A stretch of DNA of 64,000 nucleotides from Armillaria gallica (lineage: Eukaryota > Basidiomycota > Agaricomycetes > Agaricales > Physalacriaceae): assembly GCA_037576215.1 (NCBI GenBank), contig JBANDB010000011.1, positions 248,001 through 312,000 on the forward strand, given 5' to 3'. The notes beneath the pieces are model-generated. The model had not been told where the DNA came from. It searched no databases and was given only the letters and a program-made list of their open reading frames with translations. The position numbers and the translations under genes are program-made. Below, piece by piece: positions 26,953 to 64,000 of the stretch. Position 1 is the stretch's first letter, and each line of letters begins with the position of its first letter.

Positions 26953-27007
26953 GCTATTGTTGAATTACACATAGTGATTTATATATGTTGAATCTCCCTC
27001 CATCCAT

Positions 27008-28757: not shown

Positions 28758-29472
28758 CAGTCAACTTTTCGGCTGACGGGATAAGGAGGCATCACTGACC
28801 AATCCATTCTTGGCTCACCACGATGTAGAGATACATGGATGCCCGCTCCCGATGACACACCACTGACCAAAATGACTCCAGTAGATGGCACTCCACCGGA
28901 ACATTTTGGTGTGGTTCCCATCTAGGATGTTGATGAACAATCAGCCTATCATCAAATAATTAGTCCAGCACTCACATAGCCTCCTCTTCATTGTATTCAG
29001 TCCACTAATCAAAGATTAATGACAGCCAGATCTTCAGACAGCCAATAAAACCTTACCTTGACAAGATATTCCCACTTCTAGGAAGGATTGTTATAGATGG
29101 ATGAAGGAATATGATGCGGAAACTTACCATGTTATTATCATCGTCCATCTTAGCATGAGCGCCCATCAGGTATTCTGAATAAAATGAGCATCAACAAGTA
29201 TGTGGCAAAAGAAGGGAGTTACCGATGTGATACTCATCTTCTTCCATACAGATGACTAAGAAAAAGGTGTAGCTGTGGACAACGATTGGATGCAAGGTGA
29301 ATTCTGACAAAATAGAGTTTTGCTCCCTCATGCAGAGTTACAGGATCCCATCCAAAATTTCTCTACTCTTCCGAGATTTCTCAATCCTCGGAGAGAGTCT
29401 TGGGCCGGAGATCAAGCCTAGACTCGAACTAGCAGACCAAAAAATCGACCCTTCCTGTCATTTGCATCGCCC
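28758..29472. other. no supported gene
   Basis: CpG-poor spacer upstream of the plus-strand gene starting at 29473. The plus frame 29297-29491 has no motif. No repeat ends or RNA genes were seen. Confidence 0.4.
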
Positions 29473-30486: not shown

Positions 30487-30737
30487 CAACAGAAATCAAC
30501 CATGCATATATCACACTAAATAATGATGTTCTGCTAAAGTACGTTCCAAGTGCCCACCTCTCACAACCTTTCTCATGAGATGGAGTATGTTCTGATGATC
30601 TCTAATGACTCGTGAGTGTGGCAAAGAGGTGTGATGGGTGTATGCGACACTTACAGTGTTTCCAAGTCCAACTGTCCCTGATGCCTCTGCAGAGACCTTC
30701 TCTTTCCTTTGGCCAAGCAAACAGAAGCTTCAGGTAA

Positions 30738-33978: not shown

Positions 33979-36900
33979 CTACAACGTTATACCCACTAAA
34001 ACCCTGCCTACTTCCGTCCAGTCTTCGGGAAGTTGATGCTCATTGAGGATCGAGCCAGACCAAGTTCGCATTACCAGTTCTTTGTTGAGAGGCTTTTTTC
34101 CGAAACGTCTGTGAGTCATTCGGCAGTCCAGTTCAAGCCTTTTGTTGACTTTGCTTAGCCACATATTCTTGATTTTCTCTGGGGGGAGTGAGACATTCTC
34201 TTTCTGTATCACTCTTTCACACCTTGCGTTCCAGATAACTTGTGCCGATGAGGACATTATGATTCGGTAGAACCGTTCTCTTCTGCTGTCTCTGTTGCCT
34301 GCTGGATTTTTGAACTCAGGGATTGCGCAGGTGAGGACTGTTGCCAGGGTGGGAGGGTGCCATGGTATACCACGCCGTTCCAGGACTGATTTCGCCAGTT
34401 GCCAGATTTCGTTTTGTCCTGGGGAAGAGCATGCGGTCAAGATGTGTTCCATGCTTTTGACACAGTTGCCGCAGTGTTTGCAGTACGCTCGTTCATGATA
34501 TTGGGGAGCAAAGTGCAGCCATTTCGCACCGACTCTGTATGCATCGTGCATTGTCATCCACAGTAGATATCTTGTGTTTCTGTCAACATCTCTGTGTCTT
34601 AACGATTTCCATAGCTTTATTTCTGTCGGTTTGACTCCAAAGATTGCTTTTGCTTCGCTTGTTGCTAGCTGGATGTTATCTTGGGTCCTTTTCCTGTGTG
34701 GGAGCTTCTGGATGCTCCTTTCTCTGAAGGCCTTGAAGGCTCGACTCTGGGAGATCGTACAGAGTGCTGCACCTGTGACTCTCAGGGTTGGAGGTATTTC
34801 TAAGTTAATTATCTCCCCCAGGTCCTTTCTAGCACCCTCGTTAGCAAGCAAGTCCGCCATTTCGTTGCCTGGGTGGCCATTGTGGCCCTTCACCCATTTC
34901 AGGATGGTTTTCTGCTTCCTGCCATGGAAGCTTGCTACCATCACTTGTATAATTTCTTTGTTTGGGATACCAATGTATCCCAAGTCTTCCATGAATTGTA
35001 GTGATGTTGTTAGGTGTTTCAGCACGTATTTTGAGTCTGTCTCATTTTCAAGGGCAACTCGTTTATCTGCCCTGTCTGCTAGTTCTTTTGTCGCAATAGC
35101 TTCTCCTACCTGGTTCGACTAAGGCAAGGATGCAGGGATTCTCAGGGCTGATGCAATGTTGTTTTCTCCTTCAGAAAATATTCCTGCTCCCACTCTTGCC
35201 TCTGCTGAGCCATTGTCTATGCATGACCCATCGGTCACTGCCTGGATTCTCTTGCCCGAAGGAGCGCATAGTCTTAGGTCAGGCAATTCGTTGCAGGTAT
35301 TGCCTTCTGTGAAGATTCGGAACACTTTAGCTATTGAGCCCTCTGTTGTAACTCTTCGGTCAAATTCATCACCGTCTTCAAGCTGATCTGGCTCTTCTTC
35401 ATAATCTTCAGGGAGCATGAAACGTGGGTCCCACTTCTCTGGAAGTGTGTCCAGCAATTCCTTAGCACAGGCCATACATGCATGTGGTTTGGCGCAGCCC
35501 AGATTTTCTCTCATTGCTGCACAGATGTGGCAGTTGCATCTCTGGTTTCCTGTTACATTGATATGATTCGGGTCATCTAGGAATTGTGATATCTCCTCTG
35601 CTTCTCCCACTAGACATAAATTATGATTCTCTTGTAGGCAAATGCTTGCTGCTGAGTTCATTAGGAGTCTGATGCGAGGGCTGGCTTCAGCGTGGTACCA
35701 TATCGGGCGGTTCCGGAGTATTCCTCTCGAGAAGGCAATACCTTCTGCTCTCACTCCTGTATCTTTAGCGGTGTTCATAATTCTCTGTAGGTCTCTTGGC
35801 AGCTTCAATTTTTTAGCGCTGACGGATTGTAGAAAGATGTTAATCTTTATATCCCAGCTGATGTTTCTTTCTGCTTTCGGTGTGGCATGGGCTATAATAT
35901 CGTGAGCAAACAGTGACCAGGTGGGCTTTTCTTCGGACAGTAGTGCTTTGATCCACATGACTTCGATAGCTTTATTTCTGGCGCTTATGTCTAGGACACC
36001 TAATCCCCCTTGGTCTATTGGGGCTTTCAGAGTTTCGAGGTCAACCAGATTTTTGGTTCTTCCTTCCCAGATGAATTTGCGCACTCGTTTTTCCAGTTTT
36101 TCCTCTACAAGCTTTGGCATGCCTTGGACTGCTGTCAGGTATTGGGTCAGTCCCCCTATGACTGACTGAATGATGATGCATCGCCCAGGGACCGATGGGT
36201 GGGACATTTCCCAACGGTCGAGGCTCTTGTCAATTTTGTCTAGGACTGGAGTCCACACTGTATTGTCAGGGATATTGTTCCCGAACCAAGCTCCCAGTAT
36301 CCTTATTGCATCGCTCTCTTTGACTATGCGTATGTTTTCTGGGATTTTCCGGAAGTCTTCCTTGGATCTCCGGTTTTCTATGAGGTTTCTGCGAAACTCC
36401 TTGCTCCCTATTGGTATTATCTGCGTCTTTTCAACATTGAATCTTGCACCACTCGCCAAGCACCATTTATTCAGGAGGTTCATTAGATCGTCAAAATTGT
36501 CTTCCTCATGGAGGAATGTTGTCGTGTCATCAGCAAAGAGGTTCGCGATTAGTCTCTCCTCTGAGCCAGGTACTTCTAACCCTTTTAGGGAGGATTTGCA
36601 TAGCATTTCTGCGAGTGGTTCAATGGCTAGGTCGAAGAGTAAGCATGATAGAGGGTCACCCTGGCGTACTCCACGTGTGACCTTGAAAGGCGAGCTAAGG
36701 AATCCGTTTACCATTACTCTTGTTTCTGCATGTTCATAGAGTGATTTTACTGTTGTAATGAATGGCATTGGTATTTGAAAGGCTTCCATTGTTCTCCATA
36801 AGTAGTCGTGGCGTATCTTATCGTACACTTTTTCTTGGTCCAGTGCAACTATGAGGCCATTCCGCTCAGTCATATCTGCATGGTCAATGATCATTCTTAT

Positions 36901-39333
36901 TAGCTTGGTTTGGTTCATGATCTGGCGACCAGGAATGAATCCTGCCTGATCTTTGTGGATTAGTTCCGGAGCTGTTTTGACCAGTCTGATTGACAGAGCT
37001 TTGGTGAACAGTTTGTATTCTGAGTTCAGAAGAGTTATTGGATGGTAGTTCGACATTTTGTTCCGATCATTCTTTTTGTATATTGGACACATCCATCCTT
37101 CTGTGAAGTTCGTTGACTTGTCTACTCCGGATTCTTCTATGTCATTGAAGACGTCTGTAAGCATTCCAACTATGTCGAAGCATGGGAGGCCTTTTCTTTC
37201 ATCCTCAATGCATCTGTCATTAAGAACTTTGAAGAATTTATTTGTCGCTCCATTTATTCCTGGTGCTGAGTCATTCTTTGACAGCTTCAGTGGTGTCAGG
37301 ACTTCTCCTTTAGCAGTTCTGGTTTTGAGGAGTTCTTTGGCTTCCTCTGAGGGTTCTACCTTTATTTGTGTTAGGACCTCAGTCATTGTAATCTCTCTGG
37401 CATGATTGTCTATGTCAATGCCATCTTTTTGAAGGATATCGCCATGGTATTCTCTCATCATCTCTGCCATTTTTGGAGAGCAGGTCTCGTACCTGGGTTG
37501 GGGCTCTGGAACTATCTCTTCTCCTTGCTGGATGTTTGCATTTTGTTGGTTGGATCTCAAGTCATCCCCGTCTGTCCTTAGGCTGTTTGGGAATTCAAAA
37601 GCTCATATCATGTCTCGTGGCTTAGACTCTTTGTTTGCTTGGAAGTAAAACTTCAAGACTGTCTCTCCTTCCAGCCTGTCCTTTGCTGCAATGAATTTAC
37701 GAGTTGTGTCATGTTCCTCTCTTTTGATTTTTTGGAGCTCATCTTTAAGTTTAGCCAGCCTCTCAGAGTGTTCCTTCTCACTCAAGCTATCATCTTTTGA
37801 CAGTTGGCTCATAGATTTGTTGAGGTTTGACTCTTTTAGGTGGGAGTGGCATATGACAGCATGCTCCCTCTCTCTGGCTTGTTTCATGGCTTCGGTGATG
37901 AAGCGATGGTATACCTGTTGAGGATTCGATGACCCTGTTCTTCCGATTCTTTTCAGTTCCGCTATTTCCTCTTGCGCTGCCATCCCTAAGTCTTTAATTG
38001 TGCTGGCTAGCTTTTTGTCTTTGAGGATGCTGTCTGGACAGGCCCATCTGCCTTTACCTAAAATGGGGGCTGCTTCGTGGGCGATTTGAACTGATACCAT
38101 GTCATGGTCCACCCCTCTTATGCCTACTGGCTGGATTTTCCATTGCCTGGTCACTTCGAAAAGTTTGTCGGTCATGTATATTCGGTCAATCCGTGACTGG
38201 TGCATTCTTGTCTCTCTCTGACTCGACTCCTGTACTTGTACTGTTTTTGTACAGCTATAAGTGAAGTCTCTCTTGTCGGGGAAAGTGCTTCGCCAGCCAT
38301 CTCGGATTCCTAATAATTCTTTGAGGTTATCAAAGGCATTTCGGACATCTGCATGGTCCACACGCATGGGGAGGCGGTCCATTGCATCTTCTACGAAGTT
38401 CATGTCACCGCCCATGTAGTCAGGTTTCCATTCTGGGAATTCCACAAAGAATTCATATAGTGTCCTGAAGAATTCCATTGCCTCTCTTGCATCACTAGCC
38501 GTGACATTTGGAGCATAGGTGCCTAGGATTATTATGTCCTCCTCACCATGCCATCTGGTTTTCAACAGCATAGCTCGTCCAGGTACCACGACTCTCGTCT
38601 GTATGTGATGCCATTGAGTCAGTTGTTTGTTTACTACAATCGCCACTCCACCTTTGCTGGTTGGGCTTTCAGGATTTGCTGTGAATTTTATTTTCATTCT
38701 TCTCGTGAAGAGGTTTTCTAGTTCTGTGCATCAACGTTCTGTCATGTGTGCCTCAGAGACAATTAGGATTCCCGTCCGTGAGGTTCAGAGGAGTTGGTTT
38801 ATATGGCACCACTTGCTGTTCTGGATGCTGTCGCCCAATCCTGCACTGCTGAAACCATTTATGTTTAAGCATGACACCATGATTGCTGCTTTTGTCGCCT
38901 TTCGGTATTCTGCACATCTTGCTTGCCTGTTAGGCGAGATCTGGTTTGCCTGTTGTTCCAGTTCTGCAGATGGTTCTAGTGGGGGTGTATCGACTTGTGA
39001 GCCCATGAAACCATTTGGGAGTGAGCATGGCTCCTCCCCTCTATGGTGCGTGGCATGGCCACTCTCGCTATCTGGGATCTCATCTATGGGGGGACTTGAA
39101 TCATGCGAGTTTGTCGAGATGCTCGACATACATCTTTGAGAGTGCTCTCTCTGATGTCTTCCATCGCTGACTTGCATGGGAACTCCCTGACCTGTACAAG
39201 GTAAGGTCTGGGAGGCAGCTGGCATATTCCTATCATTGTCTGGGGGACCATGTGATGTTAGGTCAACCGCACCATTCTCCAGGAATTCCAATGCTGGTTC
39301 CCCACCGTTGCTACTCACACTACCGTCTTGCAT
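33979..39333 (-). pseudogene. LINE ORF2: endonuclease, reverse transcriptase, RNase H
   Basis: One minus-strand frame runs from 39333 to 33979, broken by TGA at 38785, about 38720 and 37603 and by TAG at 35119. The endonuclease has LNING, SEAH, GGDMNF, SRIDRIY and GVDHDMV, so the catalytic Asn, Glu, Asp and His are present. The reverse transcriptase has DQEKVYDKI (motif A), RGVRQGDPLS and LFADDTTTFL (motif C, catalytic FADD intact). The RNase H has TDGS, a GEAIA glutamate (just after the TAG), ETDSKYV and GNEMAD, completing the DEDD set. The C-terminal part has a Cys/His-rich CKHCGNCVKSMEH segment. Each TGA sits where a CGA arginine codon would fit. Replacing stops by sense leaves no frameshift, which indicates recent loss of function. 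Confidence 0.9.
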
Positions 39334-39810
39334 GGAGGGATAACCAGTGGGTACGTCAGAGCCTCAACTGGGTAGTGCGAGGCCAGTACCGTAAAGACCC
39401 ATATCGTAGTTTGTAGTATCCCTGTGTTCCCGACAGTTAGTAGTGCAGTTGATTCACATACCGGGTTTGCCAAACCACTGGCACGCTAGATGAATCCACT
39501 TGATCACATCTCCCCTGATGAGAGGGAAGACTTCACAAGCAGTTTAGGCTCCATCGGGTCCTGTTGGAGACAGTTGTATCGCCCCTTCCTGCTCAGCAGT
39601 CCGACTTACCTCCACTAAATCGTCAGTAATCAGAACAGGAAGATGCTTTGATGAGTGTTAGATGGTTCTAATGGACTTCTCATCTTCTCCAGTCTCATCC
39701 CTGGTTCCACTCTTCTAAGCTTGAGGCTCACCGAGATCAAACAAGTGGAAGTAAAGGATCTCTATTCAAGGCAAAATGTTACATTGAGTGGCAATTAAAT
39801 GGTAAGCGGA

Positions 39811-40974
39811 CTACTGCTTTTTACCATGCCCGACAACTTTCCAACTGTCATCGTAGTTCCTTCCACACTTGGAGCGACCACCTGACTTTCCGCTACCCTC
39901 CTTCCGCTTTCGGCCTGGGTCTTTGGGGGGTTCTGATTTCATCATGCAAAGTCAGAGTTCATCAGTGGTAGGGCCATACCATGCTGAGTCTATCCCGGGG
40001 AAGGGGCAGGCATGGCTCAGGTGGTTTTGGTTCTTGCACCAGTCACAGCCTATGATCTTGTCAACGTTCAGGAGCTGTTGATAGTTGACGTGAACTCTGA
40101 GTCTTCTGATGTGGGCCGTGAGCACCTGATGGAGATCAAGGTCATTGGTAATAGGTTCACCCATGAGCATGAAAACTGGCCCTTTGTCGTTGTCGAGATT
40201 CTTTGTTTCAATGTAGAGGAGGTGCCAGGATTGAGTCATCCTGACGGTGAGCTCAACTGGGTTTCCAAAATTACCCTGGTCTTGTGTGATGCGTTTGACG
40301 AGGTTTTGTAGCAGTATGTCACGCCAGGCTGCCGATTTGAGACATGCTAGGGCTTCAGCTATGAGAGGGGCATCATCACGAACAACGTTCCCTTGGAAGG
40401 TGGCGATGACCCATGCAAGAGCTTTAGGATTGAACGGGACAAAATTCCATACCACACGTGAGGGGATGGTGAAGCACTGGTGCCATAGTAGGAATTTGAT
40501 GAAGTCGTCTGAGATACCGGTGACGACGAGGGGCCACGGTTTGTCGAACGCACTCTTCCTGCTGCGGTGTTCTTCCTTGTTCCATCCTTTCCTCTCTTCC
40601 TTGGATTCCACTGGAAAGAAGGCCATGATGGTGCCCTTGTCTGGGAAGTCGAACCCTTCAAGGAATTCCGTAAGGAGGAGGTCGGCTCTTGGGTTGTCTG
40701 AGTAGAATTTTGGTCCAGCACTGTAGGGGATCGCAGCAATGAAGGAGCCAGGGGAGGCTGCGATGTCGTTTCGTAGGTCTTCTGGGAAGCCTGCTGTGAG
40801 GTGGTTCCAAGGTACGTATACTCTTGGGAAGGCAGCGTCAGTGAAGGGGGTAGCAGATCCTGCCGGGAGGATTGAGGGTTTTTCCCCAGAGCGGGAGATT
40901 TTGTTGTAGGGGAAAGCGTCTTCAGCCATGGGGAGGTTTGCCGTGTTTCGAGGGTCGGGGAGCTCGTAAGGCAT
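39811..40974 (-). pseudogene. LINE ORF1: Gag-like RNA-binding protein
   Basis: The minus-strand frame starts at ATG 40974 (MPYELPDPRN) and passes a single TGA at 39952. It ends at TAG 39811 after a basic, glycine-rich tail. The C-terminal part has a CCHC knuckle, CDWCKNQNHLSHACP (CX2CX4HX4C), as in ORF1p of many fungal LINEs. The N-terminal 250 residues have no motif I can name. It lies about 480 bp upstream of the first ORF2 methionine. It would coat the element RNA. Confidence 0.8.
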
Positions 40975-42571
40975 TGTGAGGAAGTCGGTGGGCTTGGGAG
41001 TTTTCCGTCGAGCATCTCGGTCCTCGTCGCTATCTGCCTGGTGTGATTCCTAAAGAGAGATCAGGGGCGGAGGACCAAGGAGAAGAAAGCGACGCACTTT
41101 AGGCCTAGAAGAGGACTCCGAGACTTTCTGCTTTTTGTTTGGTTTGTCCCCAGTGGAGATGGAGGTTGAGATGGTAGTGGAAGACAGGGTGGCTCACTGG
41201 GTGGGTAGATGGGAACCTAGGGCTGGTTATGGCCTTTTATAGTCGTTTGGACTGTCTTTGTTTTTTCTAGGACAAAGGAAGACCATGCATCGCCAGCTTC
41301 CTTTGTTCGGCTCGTTGCCGGGTGGCAGAGATGAGGTCCTTGATTGAGTGGCACTTTTCCAGTCTGTCCGCGGAGGGGGTGTGAGCCGTTGGTGACGCGT
41401 TGAAGGCAGAGTGCGTGGATGTTCATCTCGTCTGGTGTCGTGAGGCAATGATGCTGGATGCGATTGTCAAGAGCGGTTTGCATGACGTGACTTCATTGCT
41501 GGTTGGTCACGGACTCACAGGCTAGTGTCGAACCGGAGTCTGGGAGATGATTGCGTCCTTGCCATCGTTGGCAGAGGGGAGCTGAGCAATGGGGCATTGA
41601 TATCAGGAATCAACCTGTTTGCTGAGAGGGAATCCAAGGGATGGGTATTAGGAGAACGTCAGCTATCTACTACATAGAGGTAGTTAGTGGCTCCTGCCTG
41701 AATATCTGGGACGTCTCAAGACTGCGAGATGTTTCTCCTGACCAGTGAAGGTGCAGGAACGACTAATTTATTCTGCTCGACGTCTTGACGAGCAGAATCC
41801 CTTGAGCCAGTCTTGAAGTGGCTAGACACCAAACCCCACATGGTGGTGGTTCTTGATCAAGGGGCTCCCCGTGATGCAATATTATTTGGGTGCCTGGAAC
41901 CAAATACTTCAATCATGTTGCACCTGTTGGTATGTAGCTGGGCATCTTCGAAGATCGTGCTAATGTAATGTCACACAGTGTCCAGACTACAAACCCAATG
42001 GCTGGTTTTGTTTGACTTGTCCGTCGCACTGGGGATTCGGAGCAGCTAAAGTCCTATACGATATGCAACTTGTGACTTTGAAGGAACTCGTGGAGCAGGA
42101 TTCGGAGGTACGTCTAGTTGTTCACAATACAATCGTAGCACCCATGACTCCCTCTCTCCACAGACGAGAACATCGGTCATGAGTTGGATCACAGGGGAGA
42201 AGGAGGAAGACATACTGATTTATATAGATCTGGAACATACAGTGAGTCACCAGTGTTATCAAAATACCTATACTGACGCAATGCAGGATATTTACGCACC
42301 ATGGGAAGAATTGAGTGGAATTGGACTATTAGGTCAAGATCTAGTCAGTATGCAACAAGGGTTGCTCACCCAGGCAGGTCACCACCCGGTGCACACTACT
42401 GTCCAGTTATAGCACATCTCCCAATTCACGGAAACCATCCAAGTACATTTCCAATTCTCATATGCAGACAAGGTTCATGATTGGATAAAAGCAGGCCTTT
42501 ATCGCAAAGGTCATTTGACTGGATATTATTCTGGTGGGTTAGACTTCATACAAGCTTGTATAGAGATGTAG

Positions 42572-50187: not shown

Positions 50188-53100
50188 TTATGCTTTCTTC
50201 GCTTGATGCTTCTTCAGAGGTAGCATGTCCTGAGAAACACCCCCTTTCCGCTTTCCTCTGGATACAGCAGAATCGCGGCATGAAGCTGTACTGCCAACTG
50301 CTGCATCCCAACAATCGGCTTGCTTTTGAAGGGTGTGTAACCACTTGCCACTTATGTCAAGTTCGTCCCTGTTGCTACATTCCACACCGACCATTGCAGA
50401 ATCTTGGGGTTCTAGACCGGTGTCCCCCATGGAATTCAAAAAGGCCTGGGCTGTCAACTTCTCCTTGTCCATGCCATAGACAAGTCTCGTCTGCTCACAC
50501 TGCACACGAAGGCGGGTAATTTCCAGACATAAATCCTCAGAGGGCCTAACCTGTATCTTTTTTTCTGGGAACCAGACTACCAATAGGCCCTCCAGAGACT
50601 TGACTCGAGATGCCATAATGTACAGAGCTTCAGTCCCTGTGCATGAATCAAAGTCAATGATGGCACAAGTCAATGTTCTCCCCTGGGACTTGTGGGCCAT
50701 CATTGTAAACACTGGGCATACAGGGATTTGGGTGCGTTTGATGAGACACTTTCTTCCTGTATAGGGATCAACAAAACTTAGATCAACATCATTGTGGATT
50801 GCAATGGCCTGGCCTGGCCTCAGGCCTGGGAGAGCTGCAGAACTCATATCATCTACTCGTACAATGCAAGAAACTGCGTGACACAAACTAGCTTCATCTG
50901 TCCAATATCTAATCTTTTCCAAGGTACCTGAGGTCCCATTTACTACACCACCATTGACATCGTAATTCTGGGAGATCATAAGAGGCATACCAATAACCAA
51001 AGGTATTCTACCTAAGCGATGCTGTGTCTGTCCTGAATTAAGCGCCCACAAGCGATTTTGTAGATTGGAGTCGGACACTCGTGCACCTTGATGTCAATCT
51101 ACAGAGTAGTACCAGTAAAGAGGATGACCAGTCTCCCGAGCAAATGACATGGCCATTTCTTTGTTTATTGCATCCTTGATCGTGTTTTCATAAACAATAA
51201 TCTGTGCATCCTTCCAACTGGGCTCGTTCCAATCTGTTTTGACTGTGGACACCATCCATTGCAATAAAGCCTCTTAATCCTCAGTGGTGCACTTGCCAAT
51301 CTGCAATCTCCCCAGTAAGGCAACAAATGCATCATTTTCTGAACATGACTGGCACATAACCTCATGAAGTAAGACAACAGTGTCTACAGAATACCACAAC
51401 AACTTTCCTACCATGTTTGCCTGCTGCAGAATGCCGGTTGCCCATGTATTCATGTTGGTGTAGAGTCTTGTCTGCCTGACAGGTGGTAATCGAGAAAAAT
51501 CGCCAGCAAAGATAATATTTACTCTGCCAAAAGGCTTGTCATTCTCTTTTGCCACTTGTAATGCCTTGCTCACATCATGTAAAACTTTGCATCCAATCAT
51601 GGACACTTCATTGACAAATAGATAATCAACTCCTTGCCACATATTAATCAGGTCAGACTTAGTCTTGGTTGGCCGCCCATGTCGTGGATGTTGTGACAGC
51701 ATGAGCAGAGCATGCAACATGGAACTTTTAATGTTCCTGGCAGCCACTCCTGTAGAAGACGACAGTCGGAATCTGTGTTCTTGCTGCCACCACGAGAAAA
51801 AGTCCGTCAGTGCCTTTATCACCATGGACTTCCCTGTCCCTCTGGGCCCACCCAAGAACATCCACAGTTGTTCTGGTTGTTTCTTCAGGCTATGTAACAC
51901 TATGATCATAAAAGCACATTTCTGTTCTATGTTCAGAGTATACTTGAGAGCGATCGATTTGAGGTCAATGTCCATATCAGGATCTTGGGGTGCAATATCT
52001 TGCCTAAACTTGGTGCTGGCCAGAGGAACCCCACCAAAGTCGGTACAATTGGGAGAATCTCCAGTGCCAGATGATGCATCCCCGTCGGTGGGTTGCGACA
52101 AATTGTTATCAGTGCTGCCTTCCATTGCCAACTGATTTTTTCAATGCCAATCTGAATGTCTTTGGTCATAGGTTTTCTCCCATACATGCTCCTGGACAGG
52201 GTTAGCCTCACCAGCATCTTCGTAACCATCTTCTACATTGAGATTCTCATCGGAATTCATGTCCAAAGGCTGGCAATTGAAAAGCCCAGAGGCTTTCAGG
52301 GCTTTTAGACATTCCTTAATGTTCCGTTCTCGATGCTCCACATGCTGAGAGCGCTGGTTTTCAATTGTGTCGAGATGATCAAGAATTTCATCTTGGATAT
52401 CCCCTTCCCCATTGAAATCATCATCAACCTGATGCTGGCGAGTACAATTGGTGTCAGTTTTAGTCCCTGCTTTCCTGCGTCATTCTTCAAAATGGTCGTT
52501 TCGACTATCCCTGCACTTGTGCAAAAGTTGCGTGTTATCCATTCTTCGTGCAAAATCCGGATTTGCCACACAGAAGTTGGATAAGATATCAGACCAAGCC
52601 TTTCCCAGAACATGCAATTCATGGGCACTTTTCCATGGCTTGAAAAAAATAAGCATCAAATGACAGTACTGTTGATAGATCACTACTCTGTCGCGACGAG
52701 GCAGAGATTCGCCCCAAGGAACAGGCACCATCCACTTATCCGGTGGTAATTGAACTTGCACATGGGTGCTGGCCTCTTTGTGTTTGTCTTCAAATGGTAT
52801 CTGAATGTCTGCGTAGTTGTCTGGGAATGATTCGTCATCCGAATCACAGTTGTCATCTTCAACATGCTTTTGTCGCTTCTTCAGACTAGCCTTAGTAACC
52901 TTCTGTATCCAAGAAACGTATTCCCACATTGACATGTCCTTTAGATTAGGACCACGGTGAATATAGTCCTCCACCAAAGATGACCAAATGATCAGAGAAC
53001 CACTAGAATTGGTGGCGATATATACCTCATCGTTCTCATCAGGAACAAATGTTCCTTCCAGGGCTTCTTCATTGGGCCCTTCAGCACTGCTTTTGGGGAC

Positions 53101-54060
53101 CTGACATTCCACATCACATGTATTGGGCATTGTCTTGTCCAGTTCCTCCTGTGCTACCACCGGCAGCTCATCATCACCCTGTTCACCATCAGGCATTGTC
53201 TTGTCCAGTTCCTGTTGTCGTACCTGCAGTGGCTCATCACCACTCTGTTCACCATCAGGATTCTGTTCACGATCACCAGCAACACCCTCAGACACCTTTT
53301 TCGTGGTCCAACATTTGGGGGAGGGATCCATAGCATCTACAGCTTGTTCAAAGTTGGCCCAATAGACGCTGCGGAATGTATGACTCATGTAATGATCTTT
53401 ATAACCAGAAAGATATAACACGACCTCCTGACCAGACAATTCCTGTTCAGACATCATTGAATACACACACTTTTGTAACAGGTGTTTGGCTCAGATCATA
53501 ACATCGTCCTCGTCCAGGACAAATTCTCCCATCTTCTTAATGGACAGCTCCATTGTGGCATAAGCCACATTGGCCTTCAATTTCGACTTTGTGATATAGT
53601 CAGTGATATAATAGAGGACAGCTTTAGCCAATGCACTGGACCCAATGAATTTGATGTCCATGTTACAGTGGATGCTTCTAAGCATGGTCTTGTTGAAGTT
53701 GTTCACCCATCCATCCAATCATCTGAGGTGGATTTCACCTGTAGCTGAGTCTATGATAGTCTCTGGATGTCTCTTATCCTCCCTAAGCTCGAACCGGCAC
53801 TCTAGCTGGTCATCCTTGCAGTACTTGTAACAAGTATTGGCATGCTTTTGAATTTGCGACTTATTCACTAGGTTACGATAGTCTTCCTGGACCGCGTATT
53901 GACACAAGTGTTTGGGAATAGATGCCTGGATCCCATGCACAGCACTAGGGTAACATTTTGAAGAGGAGACTTTGACTCAGACAGCTGGTGGATCAGGTAA
54001 GGACATAGAAATTGTATCATCCAGAAAATCCACCAATTTCCTGTGGAACTCGGTCTCACC
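50188..54060 (-). pseudogene. Helitron Rep/helicase, 5'-truncated
   Basis: A single minus-strand frame from about 54060 to 50188 is interrupted only by stops (TGA at about 53970, 53719, 53489, 52480, 52141 and 51100; TAA at 51274). From the N-terminus: a Rep C-terminal region (FIGSSALAKAVLYYITDYIT), a linker with QELSGQEVVLYLSGY, RRDRVVIYQQYC and LLHKCRDSRNDHF, then a PIF1-type helicase. The helicase has GGPRGTGKS (Walker A), NEVSMIG where DEVSM is normal, and a C-terminal GMPLMISQNYDVNGGVVNG and FTMMAHKSQGRT. The HUH nuclease motif that should precede 54060 is absent. The frame ends close to the chromovirus left edge at about 54254. No Helitron 3' hairpin with CTRR end was recognised. The element is dead. 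Confidence 0.85.
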
Positions 54061-54253
54061 TAGTCTCTCCTAGACAGACGACGATATACCTTTTTTGACA
54101 GATGAGGTTGGTATATGTAGTCTGTCGCCTAACTCGGCCAAGTACCGCATGACTGACCTTATTATATAATCATAACTCGATGCGTCAATTTTGACCACAT
54201 CGTAGAGCATATCTGACATCTCTCAATACATAAAAACGTTACCAAGATGAAAT

Positions 54254-54719
54254 TGTTATGATTTATTCATTTTTTGCCTTATCTTATCTTATCATGGGAA
54301 ACCAGACCGACCGGGCTGTTGACCATAGGGGCAACCCAGCAACAAGACATCATTCCCATGTTATCTCTTCAATGTCGCGCAATCCAGCTTTGCTATGACA
54401 TACTCTTACATTCTCACTCCAACACCGTATGTTCGTGAACCTTACTTTTCTTACATGGTCTATTATTAGAACCCTCACTTCGCATACTTAAGTAGTAGCT
54501 CTCACTGTATGTACCCCAGCTTCAAGCTAACTTTAATCTATACCAAAACTATCACTTAATTCGTTGTGGACAGCTAGGGACTTAGCCTTAAAGCCTATTG
54601 TTTAAGGGACTCATCGGTGACTGCCCGAATGTGAGACAGCCATTGTTTACCCTTGATAGGAGTTCAGGTCTAATAATTAGCTCGAAGCTTACCCTTTGCT
54701 CCTTAACCGGAGCCTACAG
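54254..54719 (+). other. probable 5' LTR and leader of the chromovirus
   Basis: A TGTTATGA string at 54254, typical of Gypsy LTR starts, begins a 470-bp AT-rich stretch with TATC repeats and no open frame, just upstream of the first element frame. I could not find a convincing CA end, primer-binding site or 5-bp target duplication. The right LTR lies beyond the window. The boundary is provisional. Confidence 0.4.
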
Positions 54720-55952
54720 ATGTCGACGACGCTCAAGATTCTATTATCTGCAGTATACCTCGGTGTTGGACTAGCGTTTTTTGCAGCCACGCTTATATTG
54801 GCTATCATACACTACCAAAGGACAACTTGTCGCAGACGCAGCAGAAGAATTCAATACCCTCCACCACCTCTAAACTATGTCCTCCCACAGCAGCCACCAC
54901 TGGCGCACCTCCACCCACCCTTACCGCCATGAGCCCCAGCCGTTGATGAGCACCCTAGCCTCAACAGGGGAGATGAAGAAGACATTCCTGGGGAGGTGGA
55001 AGTCAGCATTCAGGAAGGAAGCAATGGAGATACTTCCGGAGCAAGGCTCCCCTTTATCGAGCTTTCGACCAACCCTCCCTCCCCTCACCAGTCCGCCAGC
55101 ACTACCCCCCATCCAGCAGCATGAGACGTTCCTACCGCCGCAGGCCTGGCAAGGTACCTCGTCCGACTCAGCTTGGGGCGACCAGGCCCTGGCGCATCCC
55201 CAGCCACAGAGCAACCTGCCAGCAGTTGTCCTGGGGGTAGCAGGGTACCAGCAGCCATCACTGACCCCTACGAGATTCGCGTCAGTTCCACTTCCGAGCT
55301 TGATATCGTCTGGGACAACCTCAATCTCCCCCTTACCACCTTCTTCCCCTACCACCCAAATCCCTATGCCACCCCTCACTACTGGGATACCCCAGTACGG
55401 ATTACAACACGATCTCCCACTCCCCCGGTCCCCGACAGACAGCCTTCGACACCTGAGTTCCCCTCTCGAGGAGCCCCAGAGACCTCGAACAGGCTCGCCA
55501 TTCCAAGGCGAAGGAGGGAGCCGCCAAGATTGGCAGTCGACCTCGTGCAGGAGCTCGACTCACATAACCAGGTCGACGAGCAGGGACTCAACTGGTATGA
55601 CCGCAAAAGGAGGAGAGCAGAGGCAGAGCGAGCGGCGGAGTTCAGAAGAATCGATGTCGAGGCAGGAAGGATTGAGGCAAGTGACCACCCCAGCATCAAC
55701 GACCAGGGAGAGACAGTATACCATACCACCAGTAGCTCCAGAACTGAGGTACTCCCCATCGAGGCGCATGTCAATGGCATCATCATCGGAGGAAGCCCTT
55801 CCCCAAGCCCCGTCCCAACCCCTGAGGTCCCAAACACCCCCCCGGCTGATCACCCCGATAACCATCGCCCAGGCGCTGTACCTCCTATCGACAGGCAAAC
55901 TGGTTCAGGTCCCTGCCATCCTCCTTGCCGCGACTCTAGAAGAGCTCTTTGA
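54720..55952 (+). pseudogene. chromovirus 5' frame with an N-terminal membrane segment
   Basis: The frame starts MSTTLKILLSAVYLGVGLAF at 54720, where residues 5-32 form a strong hydrophobic segment followed by a basic cluster (CRRRSRR). After TGA stops at 54930 and 55122 it continues through a proline-rich region and a charged helix (YDRKRRRAEAERAAEF) to 55952. It overlaps the Gag frame by more than 1 kb. A membrane-anchored 5' product is unusual for Gypsy elements. It could be a captured host exon or an extra element protein. The charge pattern and membrane segment suggest it was translated, but I have no comparison. Confidence 0.45.
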
Positions 55953-57417
55953 GCACTTCAGACAAAAATTACTAGCAGATTGAGATTGGGCCTTAATGCC
56001 AGCTGGGAGAGATTACGCACATTATGGATACAGTGATATATTGAAGGAAGAAGCCGCTCATTTTGCCTGCATCACCTACAACATGATCCATCAGGATCAC
56101 CATGCCGAAGTGCCGGCCAGGTACCAACGACCGCAGATTGACCTACCGCCGGTAACGTACACGCCGGAACCAATGGACGATGAACCCCCAGTACCGCCGC
56201 CACGGGTTGCCATGCCTGACTACCCAAGGTGGCAACTGGGCTATGCTGCTGCGGCGCCAAACTACGCGTATCCCCGAGGTTATGGACCACCAGGTACTCA
56301 GGGACGGCCTAGACTCTTCGCCGCCGCGAACGCCGATGACAGCGCTGGACCCTCGAATGTGCCCCAGCCGCCTAGTAAACCACAGCCGCCCTCTGGACCA
56401 CCAGAAGTACCACCTGCTATCCCTCAGAGGTGGGTACCACTGCGATATCCAGCGCCGCCAGGACCCCCAGACCCCCCCGCTCCATGGGTTCTCAACGCAG
56501 AGGATCAGGGACCCTGGGCGGTGCTAAAGCCAAACATGGTGAAGGAACCCAAGAATTTCAATGGTGACTCCAATGACATTGCCCGATTCTTCTCGCAGTG
56601 CGACATGTACTTCTCGGTTTTCAACCAATACTTCCGGTACCATCCCCACAAGGTCATCTTCTGCATGTCGCATTTTGGCAAGGACGCCCAGGTGTGGTGG
56701 GAACTATGCACGTGAGAGCTAGGGAGGGATACCAACAGGTTCCAATACTACCCGGCGTACAAGCAGTTCGTTGAAGAGGTCAGATGACAATTCTGGAAGG
56801 ACGCGAATGCGGAGATCAAGTTCGCGCAGTGGGAAAAACTCAGGCAGAACACCTTCCCTGATGGCGACCTATTCTTCCAGCAATTTGAATCGCTAGCTTT
56901 TGAAGCGGGAGTTATTGGAATTGACCAGATGATGGTGGCCCAGGTTAAAAAGGCATGCCGACAGACCACCAAGGATATCATTTAAGCAACAGATGGGGAA
57001 CTCCCAACAAACTACCAGGAGTGGAAACGGCGCATCCTATGAATTGACCATAATTGGAGGACACGGAAGGCAGAGCAAGGGGGCGCTAAAGCGGCAGACT
57101 GGAAGCAACAGGCGAAGACAAATGCAACCCTGACGACAAAGGGGAATCAGCAGCAGCAGAGCAGTGTCCCGGAAAAGCAGATGGGAACTGGCACGACATA
57201 TGGAGGAGCGGGCAAGCCCATGGACATCGATGTGGTATGCGCAAAGGCAAAATGCTTCTGATGCAGCCAAATCAGGCACTTCAAATGGGACTGCCCCAAG
57301 TCGCCAAAGATGAAGGAAGAGGCACTACGGTGCCTCGATTATTACTGGGACCATATAGCAACAAAGGAGAAGACGGACTCGAAGGTCAAGGAGGTAAAAG
57401 ACAGAGCCGAGCAGTAA
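54877..57417 (+). pseudogene. chromovirus Gag
   Basis: The frame is open from 54877 to 55980 (Pro/Ser-rich, then a helical LATLEELFEHFRQKLLAD). After TGA 55981 it runs on as WALMPAGRDYAHYGYSDIL, a proline-rich stretch, and a Gag core (RFFSQCDMYFSVF...VWWEL) near 56600. Further stops are TGA 56713, TGA 56785, TAA 56983, TGA 57040 and TGA 57259. The last falls inside a CCHC zinc knuckle (C-F-stop-C-x4-H-x4-C, about 57253-57291). The natural end is TAA at about 57415. The N-terminal boundary is uncertain because of the overlapping frame. The knuckle would bind element RNA. Confidence 0.75.
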
Positions 57418-57419
57418 AC

Positions 57420-58912
57420 GATTCAACTGACTCGGCTAAGAACTTGGTTTCATCGGGTGCACCCTCGTCGCCTGGTTGTAATACTCATAGTACTTCTGTA
57501 GTTATCAATACGCATTTGAATATACCCATTCGCGACTTTACTACCGAAGGTGAGACCAAGGAAGAACCAAAACTGGCAGTGGGGGCCGCTGACCCCAGGA
57601 CTGCGCAACCAGCTAAACGTCTGGCAAGTAGCTTACCACAAGCAAACACAGCAGATGAAAAGACACCTACCATAGTGTCACCTACCATAATGGTGTTGCA
57701 CCAGTCAAGGCCCTCTCCTAGCGAGACCGCCGCACTGACGAATGCACGACCAGGTAGGACGGAGCTAGAGTCTTACTTGACCTCTGATGAAGCAACCCCA
57801 TCCATCGATGGAGACCCCTCGTCACCTAAGGGGTTAGAGACCAATGCTATAACATCGTCTCCCCCGTCATCGGAGGGCTGTGCAAGGTTGTCGAAGGAGG
57901 GAACTTCGACTACAACCAGGAAAGTAGTTACCAACATCGAGGCGCCAAAAGCAACGGGGGACCCTGTGGGCTCCGAGGGAGCTGGTGAAACTGGTAAAAC
58001 CATTCATTCAGTACAAGTCGAACCTGTCGCCAGAGGTGACCCCTCCGAGAAAGGCACCCCACACCTCACCCAGGGAGGTCAAGAGCGGATACGTACCCTG
58101 CATCCTGCTCAGGAGCAGCAAGAGTCCTCAAGATGCAACTCCTCGAGGTACGACTCGAAGGAATACCGCACAGCCGATGAACAGGGGGAAGCCGCTAGCA
58201 CCCAGGTGGTAAATAGGGGGCATCCAGTACGGATCAAGGAGGTTCCTGACGACAAAGACGACACTAGCTTTCGGTTAAGCCAAAAGGCTAACCGAAAGTC
58301 CCCTGCAGTGCCTGAGGAGACCCAGTCGACGGTAGCCGAACCACCCAGTTCTAGTGCGAAGACTGAGAAGGTCCCATATATGTGGCTCAAACCGTTCGAG
58401 GCAGAATGGACGCTACGCAGCATTAAGGAAGCAAGGACCGAGTCAGAAGCGAGGGCGATCCTAAAAAACTGGATCCATAAGACGAGAGTTGAGGAAGTGG
58501 TCGACGAGATGATCGATGGGCTGAAGAAAGCCATGTGTATCAACGCGCTAGAATGGATGGACGAACTCTGACAACCCAAGTGCTATGTCTGCCGAGTAAG
58601 TGGAAATGAGAAAGCCCTGACAACCGATGTCCAAGTCGAGATACCGGGGAGTTGCACTCATATTACCTCCTCAGCTCTGGTTGACAGTGGTTGCACTAGT
58701 AGCGCCATCAACCGAGCCTTTGTCGAGAACCACCGTATCCCCACTCGTGCAACAGCGGTGCCCATTACCATATACAACACGGATGGATCAAGGAATAGTG
58801 CGGGACAAATCACCGCCTTCACCTCTTTGAGCGTCATTATCAGAGATCATGTTGAGTGCCTGGATCTGGCTGTCACTGACCTAAAAGACCGTGACATTTT
58901 CCTCGGGCATGA
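57420..58912 (+). pseudogene. chromovirus Pol N-terminus and aspartic protease
   Basis: Frame -1 relative to Gag. A long Ser/Thr/Glu-rich linker (57420-58330) leads to a charged helical block (YMWLKPFEAEW, about 58378) and a TGA at 58569. A CYVC pair follows and then the protease, with ALVDSGCTSSAI (catalytic DSG) near 58675 and DRDIFLGHD at the second hydrophobic motif, 58890-58913. The protease-RT junction GHD|WLVRHNP is cut exactly here by the insert. The sequence after GHD up to 59052 belongs to the insert, not to Pol. Confidence 0.75.
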
Positions 58913-59330
58913 TGAAGAGACTCTGTGCGCGCAGGCTAGAAATGCAACAGTGTCGAAGACACTGATCACACTCACACCCAACACTACACACACAAACCCT
59001 CAAGTTCTTGGGGGGATATTATGTGATAGAAGCAGATTGAAGCAAAACAACTAAACTCTCAGAATATACAATACACACGTATAGCAATAGCACGCGTCAC
59101 GTATCTAGATCTCTCTAAGTCCAAAGGCTTTTATAACAAGAGGCGCGACAGTTGTCGTGGGGCCTCAAGGCAAGGTGTACTACAATACACGATACGTCGC
59201 CACACACCCACAAAACCCTCAATAAGTCACGTGCGTCACACACAGGTAACCACAACAACCTAAACACACTCTAAACACGACTCAAAGCTTGCGCTCTAAG
59301 CAGAAACCCTTCACAAAACGTCCACTCAAG

Positions 59331-59735
59331 CCACAGGATTTGAACCTACGCACTCAAGCTTCCAAAACCAATCGTAGACCCACAGGGTTTGAACCTATGC
59401 CGATCCAGAGACACAATAGCCAACTAAACCCTGTCCGACAAGCCAAAGGGTTTGAACCTCTGCCGCTTGCGGAAATGAGAACCCTCAAGTGCGCACTAAT
59501 CAGACCACAGGGTTTGAACCTGTGCCGCCTGTAGCGCTGCGCGTTAGAAGAAGGCCTCTGTACGAACACTAATCAGACCAAAGGGTTTGAACCTCTGCCG
59601 CCTGTAGTATCTCGCACACAAGAAACGCCGTCCGACAAGCCAAAGGGTTTGAACCTCTGCCACTTGTGGAATGGTATACCCAACTAAGCGCGTGCTAATC
59701 AGACCACAGGGTTTGAACCTGTGCCACCTGTAGCA
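59331..59735 (-). repeat. seven tRNA T-arm-like repeats
   Basis: Seven units lie at about 59331, 59381, 59443, 59505, 59578, 59640 and 59704, spaced 50-73 bp. On the minus strand the core reads ACAGGTTCAAACCCTGT, a perfect 5-bp stem with a TTCAAAC loop, matching the tRNA T-arm and the pol III B box (GGTTCRANNCC). A shared flank (CTACAGGCGGCA) precedes the core in several units. The last units (59504, 59703) keep the full stem; others have one stem mismatch. No complete tRNA cloverleaf is evident. Confidence 0.75.
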
Positions 59736-59844
59736 CCACACATCACAAGAAACCCTCAAAACTCAAGAGCGCGTCTGCAATGACACAATATCTCTTATTC
59801 TCAGGGTAGAGCGCAGTCAACCAATCACTCAAACCATACACAAG

Positions 59845-59890
59845 TCCCCGCTAGGCAAGTCCCCTGCTAAGCAAGTCCCCCGCTAAGCTT
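59845..59890 (+). repeat. three short tandem repeats
   Basis: Three imperfect copies of CAAGTCCCCYGCTAAG lie in tandem within the insert, about 110 bp beyond the T-arm-like array. Confidence 0.7.
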
Positions 59891-60779
59891 TCTATGCCTC
59901 GCGCGCAACTCAATTCACTCGGTATGATATCAATTCTAGGTTTATTCTCTCGCTCGAAGTTACAAACTAATCCTGCTGCTAGGGCATCAAGCTGGAGGCT
60001 TGCGCACGACTACAACGGGGGTCCGAAACTTGTACACTACAAGTACACTGCGCTATTTATCTATTTTACATCCTACAAATTTGTACCACCAAATATAGTA
60101 ATATTTAAGCTGCGGGGTACTTTCACCTGCATCCCGCGCATGTTGCAATTATCACGCCATAGCTTGGCGCTGACTCAGGAGTCTGGCCCGGGGCCAGGTC
60201 CTGTCTCTGAGTGTCACAGCATTGGTTACCAAGGCTATGACATGCGGGTTGACATCAGTTGCCATATCCCCGGAGTTATAGCCTACCCCGCAACTTCTTA
60301 TTTCGCTTCCTAGTATTCTCACAGGGAATTCCATTGTAGTGAGGGCAATGTGCTTCTTGTCTAGGCCTCGCGCATTTCGGCTGAAGCCCGGAACTTCGGA
60401 TTTACTTGAGTTCTGACATCTCAAGGTCTAGAACTCTAAGCTTTGGGCCTGCCATGCCTTGCGCGTCATAGATCACTGCTACACGAAGTCTTAATTACCC
60501 CGCAAGCATGTCCCATGCTATTCTTAGCATGTGTATGCTTTGCCTTGTCAGAGCACTCAGTGTCAAGCACTGGGACTTCATACCTAGTACGGCCTTTCTA
60601 GTACCATTCTCAGGTTAAGCCATGCGCTCCACCCAGCTTTACTCTGGTAATATCATTACTGGCATTATAAACACTGCGCTCTGCTGCTTTCATCATTGCC
60701 TTCGTGTCTGGGCATTATTGCCTGTACTCATTTGTACAATTCGCAAATTTACACGCATGAATGCTTTTCAAGTGTGTCA

Positions 60780-62410
60780 ACGACTGGTTGGTGAGACACA
60801 ATCCGCTGATTAACTGGCAAACCGGGAAGATGATCTTTGCCCGATGCCAGTGCTGTCACACCCCAATTCCATTACCGGATGCGGACCCGTATGATAAATG
60901 GGACGAGGAGCTTGAAGAGGGTGACACCATCCTTGTGATAAACTTCAAAGAAGCTATTCACATCAGAGCAATGCGGCATGTGGCGAATGACTTAGCAGCC
61001 AAAGCAAATGTGGACAGGAAAGCCAAAACGTTCAAAGAAATTGTTCCTGAATGGTGCCGAGACTTCAAAGACTTATTCAATAAAGAAAGCTTTGATGAAC
61101 TCCCAGAACCGAAACCATGGGACCATGCCATCGAACTTATTCCAAATGCTAATGCCAACCTGGACTGCAAGGTCTATCCACTCAACCGAGAAGAGCAGGA
61201 AGAGTTGGACAAATTCCTGGATGAAAATCTAGCCAGCGGAAGGATACGACCTTCCAAATCGCCTATGGTGTCCCCATTCTTCTTCGTCAAGAAAAAGGAT
61301 GGGAAGTTGAGACCTGTTCAGGATTACCGGAAGCTTAACGAAATGACGATCAAAAATCGATACCCACTTCCTTTAATCTCAGAACTCATGGACAAACTAC
61401 GAGGCACCAAGTACTTCTCTAAACTGGATGTTTGATGGGGGTATAATAACATTTGTATCAAGACAGGAGATGAATGGAAGGCAGCCTTCAGAACCAACCG
61501 TGGCTTGTACAAGCCGACGGTTATGTTCTTCAGGCTCACCAACTTGCCTGCCACCTTCCAATGGATGATGAACAACATCTTTAAAGACCTCATCGCGTCC
61601 GAAAAGGTTACCATCTACCTCGACAACATCCTCATTATGTCCAAAACCAAAGAGGAGCACCGTTGGATCACACGGGAGATACTAGTGACCCTACGAAGAC
61701 ACAAACTGTTCCTTAAAGCCGAGAAATGCGAGTTCGAAGTCCTCAAAACGGAGTACCTAGGCATCATCATCAGCGAAGGCAGCACCCGCATGGACCCAGT
61801 CAAAATTAAGGGCATCCTCGATTGGCTGGTACCAACCAAGAAGAAGGAGCTGCAATCATTTTTGGGATTCACGAACTTTTACCGATGCTTCATAAACAAT
61901 TACAGCAAAATTGTGAAGCCCATGACTCAGTTGACAGGCAACAATGTGTGGCAATGGGGCAAGGCTCAGCAGGAGGTGTTCGAACAGTTGAAGAAGCAAT
62001 TGGCTGAGGACGTCATACTCGCTATACCAACGAACGAGGGGAAGTTCAGAGTAGAAGCAGATGCCAGCAAGGGAGCCATTGGTGCAGTGCTCTCTCAAGA
62101 GCAGGATGGCAAATGGAGAGCGGTCTCATTCTTATCCAAATCTCTTTCCATCACTGAGCGCAACTACGAGATCTACGACAAGGAGCTCCTTGCGATCATG
62201 CTTGCTCTCGAAGAATGGAGGCACTACTTAATGGGCACGTACCAAGATTTTGAAATCTGGACAGATCACCAAAACCTCCAGTATTTCCGAAAACCTCAGA
62301 AGGTAAACCGATGCCAAGCTCGGTGGATCACCGAGCTGGCCGAATACCATTTCACCCTCCACCACAAGGCTGGGACCGCCAACAAAAAGGCTGACCTACT
62401 CTCCCAATGA
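60780..62410 (+). pseudogene. chromovirus reverse transcriptase and RNase H
   Basis: The frame resumes after the insert with DWLVRHNPLINW. The reverse transcriptase has SPFFFVKKKDGKLRPVQDYR, YPLPLISELMDKLRG, and KLDV-stop-WGYNN (TGA 61433 at a position that is normally arginine). It continues through LPATFQWMMN and YLDNIL at about 61617, where the family has YLDD. Loss of the second aspartate would abolish polymerisation. The change GACGAC to GACAAC is a CpG transition on the other strand. The RNase H has EADASKGAIG, YDKELLAI, TDHQNLQYF and NKKADLLS, so the DEDD residues are kept. A TGA at 62408 separates it from integrase, again where arginine is expected. Confidence 0.9.
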
Positions 62411-63808
62411 GTGGACCACAACCAGGGACAGGACGACAACGACCAGGTCATAGTCCTATCCCTGGAGCACTTCAGGGCCATGATCATGCCCATGCTCGAA
62501 GAGACACACCAACACGTACAAACCGCTACCAGGAAGGTTCATCTCTGGGATAATGCCATCGCCGGCTCCATCAACCACGACCGCAGCATGAAGCTAGAGG
62601 ATGGACTCATTTGGTACGATGGCAGAATCTACGTTCCACGGGACCACGCACTACGAGGGGAAATCATCACCCGATCCCATGATCATGTCACTGCCAGACA
62701 CCCGGGTATCGAGAAGACCAAGGAACTCGTGCTGCGAGAGTTCTGGTGGCCGAAGTTGAAAAAAGACGTCGAAGCCTATGTATGAGCCTGCGAAACTTGT
62801 CAGCGCACAAAAAGCAGCACTCAAGCAAAGGCAGCCCCTTTTCACCCCAACGAAATACCTTCTCACCCATGGACCCACATCTCAGTAGACATGGTAACGG
62901 GTTTACCCAAGAGCAATGGCCATGACGCCATCCTGGTGATCATGGATCATTTCTCGAAAGAGATCATCCCTGTCACGTGCTCCACCGAACTATCATCAGA
63001 AGGGTGGGCAAAGATTTTATGAGACGAAGTATATGCCAAACATGGAATGCCCCAAGTCATCATTTTGGACAGAGGAACGGTGTTCGTATCCAAATTCATG
63101 AAGGACCTCTACGACCTCCTGCAAATCAAGGGCAATGCCTCTACAGCCTATCACCCCCAAACAGATGGACAGACCGAGAGGGTTAATCAAGAAATTGAAA
63201 AATACCTTTGTATGTTTGTCAATCATCTCCAAACCAATTGGGCAGAGTGGCTCTCCCTTGCCACATTTGCTCACAATAACCGAGTACATTCCTCTACCGG
63301 CAAAAGCCCATTCGAAATCAACTACGGCTACAACCCCAATGTGTTACCAGGAACAAAAACCACTGCACCATTCCGTACCCCCGCCTCCAACACCTTTGTC
63401 TCAAAAATGCAAGAGATCCATGCTGCTGCCAAGCAATCCCTCGAAAAGGCTGCACTACAGATGAAGACGCAATACGACAAGTCAAAGCACCCAGCCATCA
63501 AGTACAAAGTAGGCAACAAGGTCTGGCTCGACACATCCAATCTCCATCTTCCCCGTCCAAAGAAGAAACTCGACGACAAATGAATGGGCCCTTTCGAAAT
63601 CAAAGATAAGAAAGGCGCCTCGGCATATACCCTTGCCCTACCCGTCAACTGGAAAATTCACCCTACCTTCAACGAGTCGCTACTCACTCCATACATTCCT
63701 CCAGCATTTCCCAATCAAGAACAACCACCTCCCCCGCTGCCAGACCTTATAGACAGTGAAGAATACTATGAAGTCGAGAAAGTCCTAGACATCAGGCATC
63801 GACGAGTA
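62411..63808 (+). pseudogene. chromovirus integrase with GPF module
   Basis: The HHCC zinc domain reads HVTARHPG...(TGA 62783)...CETCQ. The DDE core has SVDMVTG, a MDHFSK segment, LDRGTVF and HPQTDGQTERVNQEIE, with D, D and E all present. A TGA at 63020 lies between the first and second catalytic residues. After a TGA at 63581 comes the GPF module (MGPFEIKDK...YTLALP...IHPTFNESLL), typical of chromovirus integrases. It would insert element cDNA if translated. All three stops are TGA at expected arginine positions. Confidence 0.85.
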
Positions 63809-64000
63809 TGAGGAAGGAGAGGGGAACCACCGAGAACGGCGACAGACTACTTTGTCAAATGGAAAGGCTATGGACCCGAATCAAACAGCTGGGTACGGGA
63901 GGACGACATGGATGCTGACAAACTTATCGAAGAGTTCCTTGCTGAACATGTTGACAAGGTTACCACCGACATATATCAAGCAGACTGGCAATCATACACA
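63809..64000 (+). pseudogene. chromovirus integrase chromodomain, cut by the window end
   Basis: After a TGA at 63809 the frame continues with DYFVKWKGYGPESNSWVRED, the core of a chromodomain with its aromatic residues (Y, W, W), then a DADKLIEEF helix. In chromoviruses this domain steers integration toward heterochromatin marked by histone methylation, which fits the dense transposon nest here. The stop codon and right LTR are beyond 64000. Confidence 0.85.

What the first reader, a model, noticed from the sequence alone, without database searches (positions are those of the whole stretch)
50188..63811. In-frame stops are almost all TGA at arginine positions: CpG-specific decay
By my count, in the correct frames, the chromovirus has about 12 TGA and 1 TAA; the LINE has 4 TGA and 1 TAG; the Helitron has 6 TGA and 1 TAA. 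The HET-related gene (TGA 10161, 11289), the RING gene and the 44324 gene add more TGA. Many sit where the family has arginine (for example LDV-stop-WGYNN in the RT). CGA to TGA is a CpG transition. Neurospora-type RIP prefers CpA and would make TAA/TAG from CAA/CAG. So the pattern points to 5-methyl-CpG deamination in methylated repeats and nearby genes.
Basis: partly seen in the sequence, partly recalled or inferred. Interest (0 to 1): 0.75.

Follow-up and report, generated by a model that had tools for sequence, protein, structure and literature searches.

The report
CpG decay of fungal transposons
Old mobile elements in what looks like a honey-mushroom genome are worn away almost only at CG letter pairs, which turns arginine codons into TGA stops; this fits slow chemical loss of methylated cytosine, already described in other mushrooms and seen here in an unusually pure form.

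Summary
The core of the finding holds. In 30 copies of the chromovirus RT-RNaseH-integrase piece, in-frame stops are 85 TGA, 7 TAG, 0 TAA; at TGA columns the commonest codon in the other copies is CGA in 70 of 85 cases. CGA has become TGA in 50 of 268 cases, CAA has become TAA in 0 of 218. The cleanest test: in 16 of 17 LTR pairs examined, 263 of 300 differences are CpG transitions, about 82-fold (bootstrap 55-150) above other C-to-T changes. Strand symmetry in LTRs, no strand tracts, graded decay, and DNMT1/DNMT5-type genes without a RID-type one favour passive deamination of 5-methyl-CpG over RIP; methylation itself was not measured. Corrections: the chromovirus TAA and one TGA lie in a nested 1.87-kb solo LTR; the LINE stops give no support; the Helitron counts are right, but arginine stands opposite only 2 of 6 TGA in the one relative aligned; the HET-like gene fits; the RING and 44324 genes were not identified. 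CpG-biased decay of basidiomycete transposons is in print, so this is a clean new case with a high ratio.

The parts
54254..64000 (+). Ty3/gypsy chromovirus; its 3' LTR lies just past the window end (L043:156-577, i.e. positions 64156-64577)
   Evidence: aspartic protease, RT, RNase H, integrase zinc finger, SH3_Tf2-1 and chromodomain matches (integrase core only weak, E 0.0079); LTR pair 422 nt, 92.9% identical, no gaps
54254..54675 (+). 5' LTR; 19 of 30 differences to the 3' LTR are CpG-class
60780..63811 (+). pol after the nested insertion: 6 in-frame stops, all TGA, at columns where CGN is the commonest class in 29 other copies
50188..53979 (-). Helitron-type gene with PIF1-like helicase; 6 TGA and 1 TAA in frame before the final TAA; CpG o/e 0.42
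33979..41060 (-). LINE (RT, RNase H); its stops do not support the CGA-to-TGA claim; CpG o/e 0.53
9706..12119 (+). HET-like gene copy, interrupted; both TGA opposite CGA in two paralogs; 30 of 66 shared CpG lost by transition
   Evidence: (HET match weak, E 0.012, below cut-off)
10344..10965 (+). hAT-like MITE inside the HET-like gene, CpG o/e 1.22
21300..31700 (.). CpG-poor stretch (o/e 0.42) with only two short matches elsewhere in the genome

Best explanation
The window most likely comes from an Armillaria-like agaric. Its transposons, and some sequence beside them, are CpG-methylated and lose CpG by deamination of 5-methylcytosine to T, which is poorly repaired. Sites mutate one by one, on either strand, and after the first hit the site is no longer a CpG. 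Because CGA is the only sense codon that a CpG transition turns into a stop, reading frames break almost only as TGA at arginine codons. Shown: CpG specificity, its size, strand symmetry in LTRs, the codon consequence, DNMT1- and DNMT5-type genes. Inferred: that these CpG are methylated, and that the deamination is passive.
For: 16 LTR pairs: 263 of 300 mismatches CpG-class, ratio to other C-to-T 82 (55-150), TG 131 and CA 132, strand runs z -0.19, the two LTRs of a pair decay alike (p 0.36), decay graded from 0.18 to 0.81. Codon positions 1+2 in 30 copies: CpG 299 of 1781, CpA 9 of 2018, CpC 22 of 3035, CpT 50 of 2238. CGA to TGA 50 of 268, CAA to TAA 0 of 218, CAG to TAG 1 of 334. Double change CG to TA 5 of 2370. 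Methyltransferase places: two DNMT5-type, two DNMT1-type, one DNMT2-type. Ten 2.5-kb samples elsewhere have CpG o/e 0.85-1.02, while much of the window lies at 0.15-0.8. A review table lists Armillaria bulbosa as methylated (PMC7862722, passages).
Against: Methylation was not measured. The ratio is above the 10-50-fold quoted for mammals (PMC1764022, passages), so something beyond plain deamination is possible. In the coding copies TG and CA products are unequal (493 and 351), which codon constraint may explain. In MITE copies only 53% of all-pair mismatches are CpG-class. In the window's own LTR pair 11 of 30 mismatches are not CpG. CpG decay correlates only weakly with other differences across pairs (rho 0.44, p 0.09).
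Confidence: 0.75

Rival explanations
1. An active RIP-like process in the sexual cycle that recognises repeats and mutates CpG, working through DNMT1/Masc2-type enzymes instead of RID.
For: The very high ratio of 82, the normal CpG content of ten samples elsewhere, and two DNMT1-type places. Published authors leave such a process open for basidiomycetes (PMC6980582 and PMC4014442, passages).
Against: No strand tracts (z -1.15 in copies, -0.19 in LTRs); graded decay; a stretch with almost no match elsewhere is as CpG-poor as the repeats, though that search failed to list the window itself and is therefore weak.
Confidence: 0.17
2. The TGA stops are inherited or background: this composition simply makes TGA common, or source elements already carried the stops.
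For: TGA is 48% of six-frame stop triplets in the window; each of the six pol TGA is shared with 2-7 of 29 copies; the LINE TGA is shared with its nearest copy.
Against: 85 of 92 stops against 39% expected; the six pol TGA are minority states; LTR differences are post-insertion and are CpG-class in 263 of 300.
Confidence: 0.05
3. Neurospora-type RIP with CpA preference.
For: None found; the process is C-to-T in repeats.
Against: CpA 0.8% against CpG 40% in LTR pairs; no RID-type among the five PF00145 matches; CAA to TAA 0 of 218.
Confidence: 0.01

Closest known systems
CpG-biased C-to-T decay of basidiomycete transposons (Amselem et al. 2015, PMC4352252, and Tricholoma matsutake, PMC6980582: passages read; Horns et al. 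2012: not held, known through citing passages only)
   Same: CpG context, repeats affected, DNMT1/Masc2-type genes present, RID absent
   Different: Here measured on LTR pairs with a ratio of about 82. The matsutake paper cites Horns as saying RIP is absent from Agaricomycotina, the Rhizoctonia paper cites two studies as reporting CpG bias in Basidiomycota; I could not read Horns
CpG hypermutation in Rhizoctonia solani AG8 (PMC4014442, passages read)
   Same: CpG-to-TpG bias; TGA named as its main nonsense product
   Different: There genes and repeats are hit alike with a moderate bias (about 40% of C-to-T at CpG); here the ten samples elsewhere keep CpG and the bias in LTRs is near-exclusive
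Neurospora RIP
   Same: C-to-T decay of repeats
   Different: Prefers CpA and needs RID; neither was found here
5-methyl-CpG deamination in mammals (PMC1764022, passages read)
   Same: CpG transitions on both strands, TpG/CpA excess
   Different: 10-50-fold quoted there, 82-fold (55-150) here

Membership tests
5-methyl-CpG deamination | C-to-T transitions concentrated at CpG | tested here: met
   263 of 300 LTR mismatches; codon positions 1+2
5-methyl-CpG deamination | independent hits on both strands, one hit ends the site | tested here: met
   TG 131, CA 132, runs z -0.19 in LTRs; TA 5 of 2370 in copies, where TG 493 and CA 351 are unequal
5-methyl-CpG deamination | CpG methyltransferases present | tested here: met
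   two DNMT1-type and two DNMT5-type places; C18 assigned only by its score, equal to C9
5-methyl-CpG deamination | the CpG are methylated | not testable with these tools
   no methylome; a review table lists Armillaria bulbosa as methylated
RIP of the Neurospora type | CpA preference | tested here: not met
RIP of the Neurospora type | RID/Masc1 gene | tested here: not met
   5 PF00145 matches, none of that type; search is exon by exon and may miss genes
RIP of the Neurospora type | acts only on repeated DNA | tested here: inconclusive
   21.3-31.7 kb is CpG-poor and had two short matches, but the search did not list the window itself
Pucciniomycotina-type TpCpG mutation | T before the mutated CpG | tested here: not met
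   ACG 0.20, CCG 0.19, GCG 0.16, TCG 0.15
Ty3/gypsy chromovirus | LTRs, RT-RNaseH-integrase order, chromodomain at the end of pol | tested here: met

The most novel reading that the evidence does not exclude
The decay is not plain chemistry. An unnamed, RID-independent process in this agaric turns methylated CpG in transposons into TpG at some 80 times the rate of other cytosines and leaves nearly everything else alone, a CpG-restricted genome defence. A milder form: in a very long-lived fungus, time-driven deamination far outruns replication error, so the CpG to non-CpG ratio of LTR pairs records life history.
Probability: 0.2. Interest if true: 0.7.

Novelty: new member of a known kind. Interest (0 to 1): 0.4.

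Why it matters
LTR pairs give a nearly selection-free measure of mutation in a mushroom, and it is almost pure CpG decay. This explains the TGA-at-arginine signature, warns that LTR dates in such genomes should leave CpG sites out, and makes the passive-or-active question for basidiomycete CpG mutation testable by methylome and pedigree sequencing.

Tried and rejected
RIP with CpA bias: rejected on the context tables. Strand tracts as a mark of an active process: none seen. TpCpG preference: none. Loss of a uracil/thymine glycosylase as reason for the high ratio: PF03167 gave no match in the genome, but the controls that ring are prokaryotes and introns may hide the gene, so no conclusion. A triplet polarisation over copies gave CpG 0.31 and CpT 0.14 but also T-to-C rates up to 0.15, since it mixes source-lineage change with decay; codon-position and LTR-pair tests were preferred. 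One search left minus-strand loci unturned and was redone. LINE stops as support: rejected. One LTR pair of 17 (C9:1.59M) was dropped before pooling because it was no closer to its partner than to another LTR; it had 23 of 29 mismatches CpG-class. In one search some copies may be out of frame (61 gap columns in the window row), so its stop counts are rougher than those.
Full report
What the window is. It is bases 248001-312000 of contig C11 of an 86-Mb genome in 28 contigs. The best named relatives of the RT piece are Armillaria ostoyae proteins (up to 76% identity over the whole piece; unnamed entries reach 87% over part of it), so the source is most likely an Armillaria or close agaric (inference). 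The elements are a Ty3/gypsy chromovirus from 54254 to 64577, just past the window end, a Helitron-type helicase gene at 50188-53979 and a LINE at 33979-41060.

Check of the stops. In pol after 60780 the frame has six stops, all TGA. Among 29 other copies CGN is the commonest class counted at each of the six, and TGA a minority. The Helitron counts (6 TGA, 1 TAA) are right, but in the one relative aligned, 40% identical, arginine stands opposite two of six TGA. In the LINE the one covered TGA is also TGA in the nearest copy, CAA in another and opposite Tyr in a third; the TAG stands opposite Gln. The HET-like gene at 9706-12119 is interrupted by an hAT-like MITE; both its TGA stand opposite CGA in two paralogs. 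There the window copy lost 30 of 66 CpG shared by the other two, the paralogs 6 of 43 and 9 of 44. I could not identify the RING gene or a family for the 44324 gene.

Thirty copies. The RT-IN piece was aligned in the window and 29 of the 39 other scored places (528 candidates in all). Stops are 85 TGA, 7 TAG, 0 TAA. Context-blind C-to-T would give 39% TGA; the excess stays when each column and stop type is counted once (27 of 33, p 7e-7). In the next kilobase the counts are 29 TGA, 7 TAG, 3 TAA, a weaker excess on a rougher alignment. At codon positions 1 and 2 C-to-T is 0.168 at CpG, 0.0045 at CpA, 0.0072 at CpC and 0.0223 at CpT. The mild CpT excess is not seen in LTR pairs and is unexplained.

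LTR pairs. The two LTRs of an element are alike at insertion, so their differences are later and nearly free of selection. I examined 17 pairs, the window's and 16 others, chosen from the 40 scored LTR matches (380 candidates); one was dropped as not clearly paired. In 16 pairs 263 of 300 mismatches are CpG-class (CG against TG or CA, or TG against CA), 29 are other transitions and 8 transversions in 6655 columns. The share of CpG decayed per LTR is 0.40, counting hidden same-strand double hits as equal to visible opposite-strand ones. The ratio to other C-to-T is 82 (bootstrap over pairs 55-150), or 99 without the window pair. The window pair is the least pure, 19 of 30.

Mechanism. In LTRs TG and CA products are equal (131 and 132), strand runs are absent (z -0.19) and the two LTRs decay alike (p 0.36); decay is graded from 0.18 to 0.81. 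In the coding copies runs are absent too (z -1.15), TA is rare (5 of 2370), and TG and CA are unequal (493 and 351), perhaps through codon constraint. This is what independent deamination of methylated CpG would give. The five methyltransferase places are two DNMT5-type (C9 read; C18 has the same score; the solved chain is 7r76, filed as Rad8, which I recall as Cryptococcus Dnmt5), two DNMT1-type and one DNMT2-type, none RID-type. That resembles the set a review lists for Agaricales, and its table marks Armillaria bulbosa as methylated (PMC7862722, passages). Ten 2.5-kb samples elsewhere have CpG o/e 0.85-1.02, against 0.42 in the Helitron and in 21.3-31.7 kb and 0.15 in the 13-17 kb duplication. 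The 21.3-31.7 kb stretch had two short matches elsewhere, which speaks against a need for repeats; but that search did not list the window itself, so it is weak.

Against the reading. Methylation was not measured. The ratio is above the 10-50-fold quoted for mammals (PMC1764022, passages). MITE copies show a CpG share of 53% of all-pair mismatches; they differ in source as well as in decay. CpG decay and other differences correlate weakly (rho 0.44, p 0.09), partly because other differences are few.

Compared with print. CpG-biased decay of basidiomycete transposons without RID and with Masc2/DNMT1-type genes is described (PMC4352252 and PMC6980582, passages), and TGA as its nonsense product is named for Rhizoctonia (PMC4014442, passages). 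Searches for Armillaria with methylation, RIP or mutation terms (one search listed 15 of 5,897) showed no title or abstract start on this pattern in Armillaria; the library lacks most subscription journals. So the kind is known; the LTR-pair measurement and its purity are what this case adds.

Noticed in passing
58913-60779: Young nested solo LTR (1,867 bp) inside the chromovirus pol; pairs of full-length matches about 6.9 kb apart elsewhere (for example on C20 and C7) suggest a complete element of about 8.8 kb.
   Followed up: partly
9706-12119: HET-like gene belongs to a family with many copies on C11 between 197 and 575 kb (and a few elsewhere); the window copy carries an hAT-like MITE with an apparent 8-bp duplication.
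   Followed up: partly
13300-17250: A 2-kb tandem duplication with extremely low CpG (o/e 0.15).
   Followed up: no
21300-31700: About 10 kb of CpG-poor sequence without Pfam matches in the pieces scanned; two short matches lie 9 kb apart on C5 in the same order, perhaps an old diverged relative.
   Followed up: partly
45267-48361: Several inverted repeats (arms 398 and 312 nt, 88-94% complementary).
   Followed up: no
whole genome G000: No match to the uracil/thymine DNA glycosylase family PF03167; inconclusive because introns may hide the gene.
   Followed up: no
30-copy alignment of window 60761-62782: Mild CpT-to-TpT excess at codon positions 1 and 2 (0.022 against 0.0045 at CpA), not seen in LTR pairs.
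   Followed up: no
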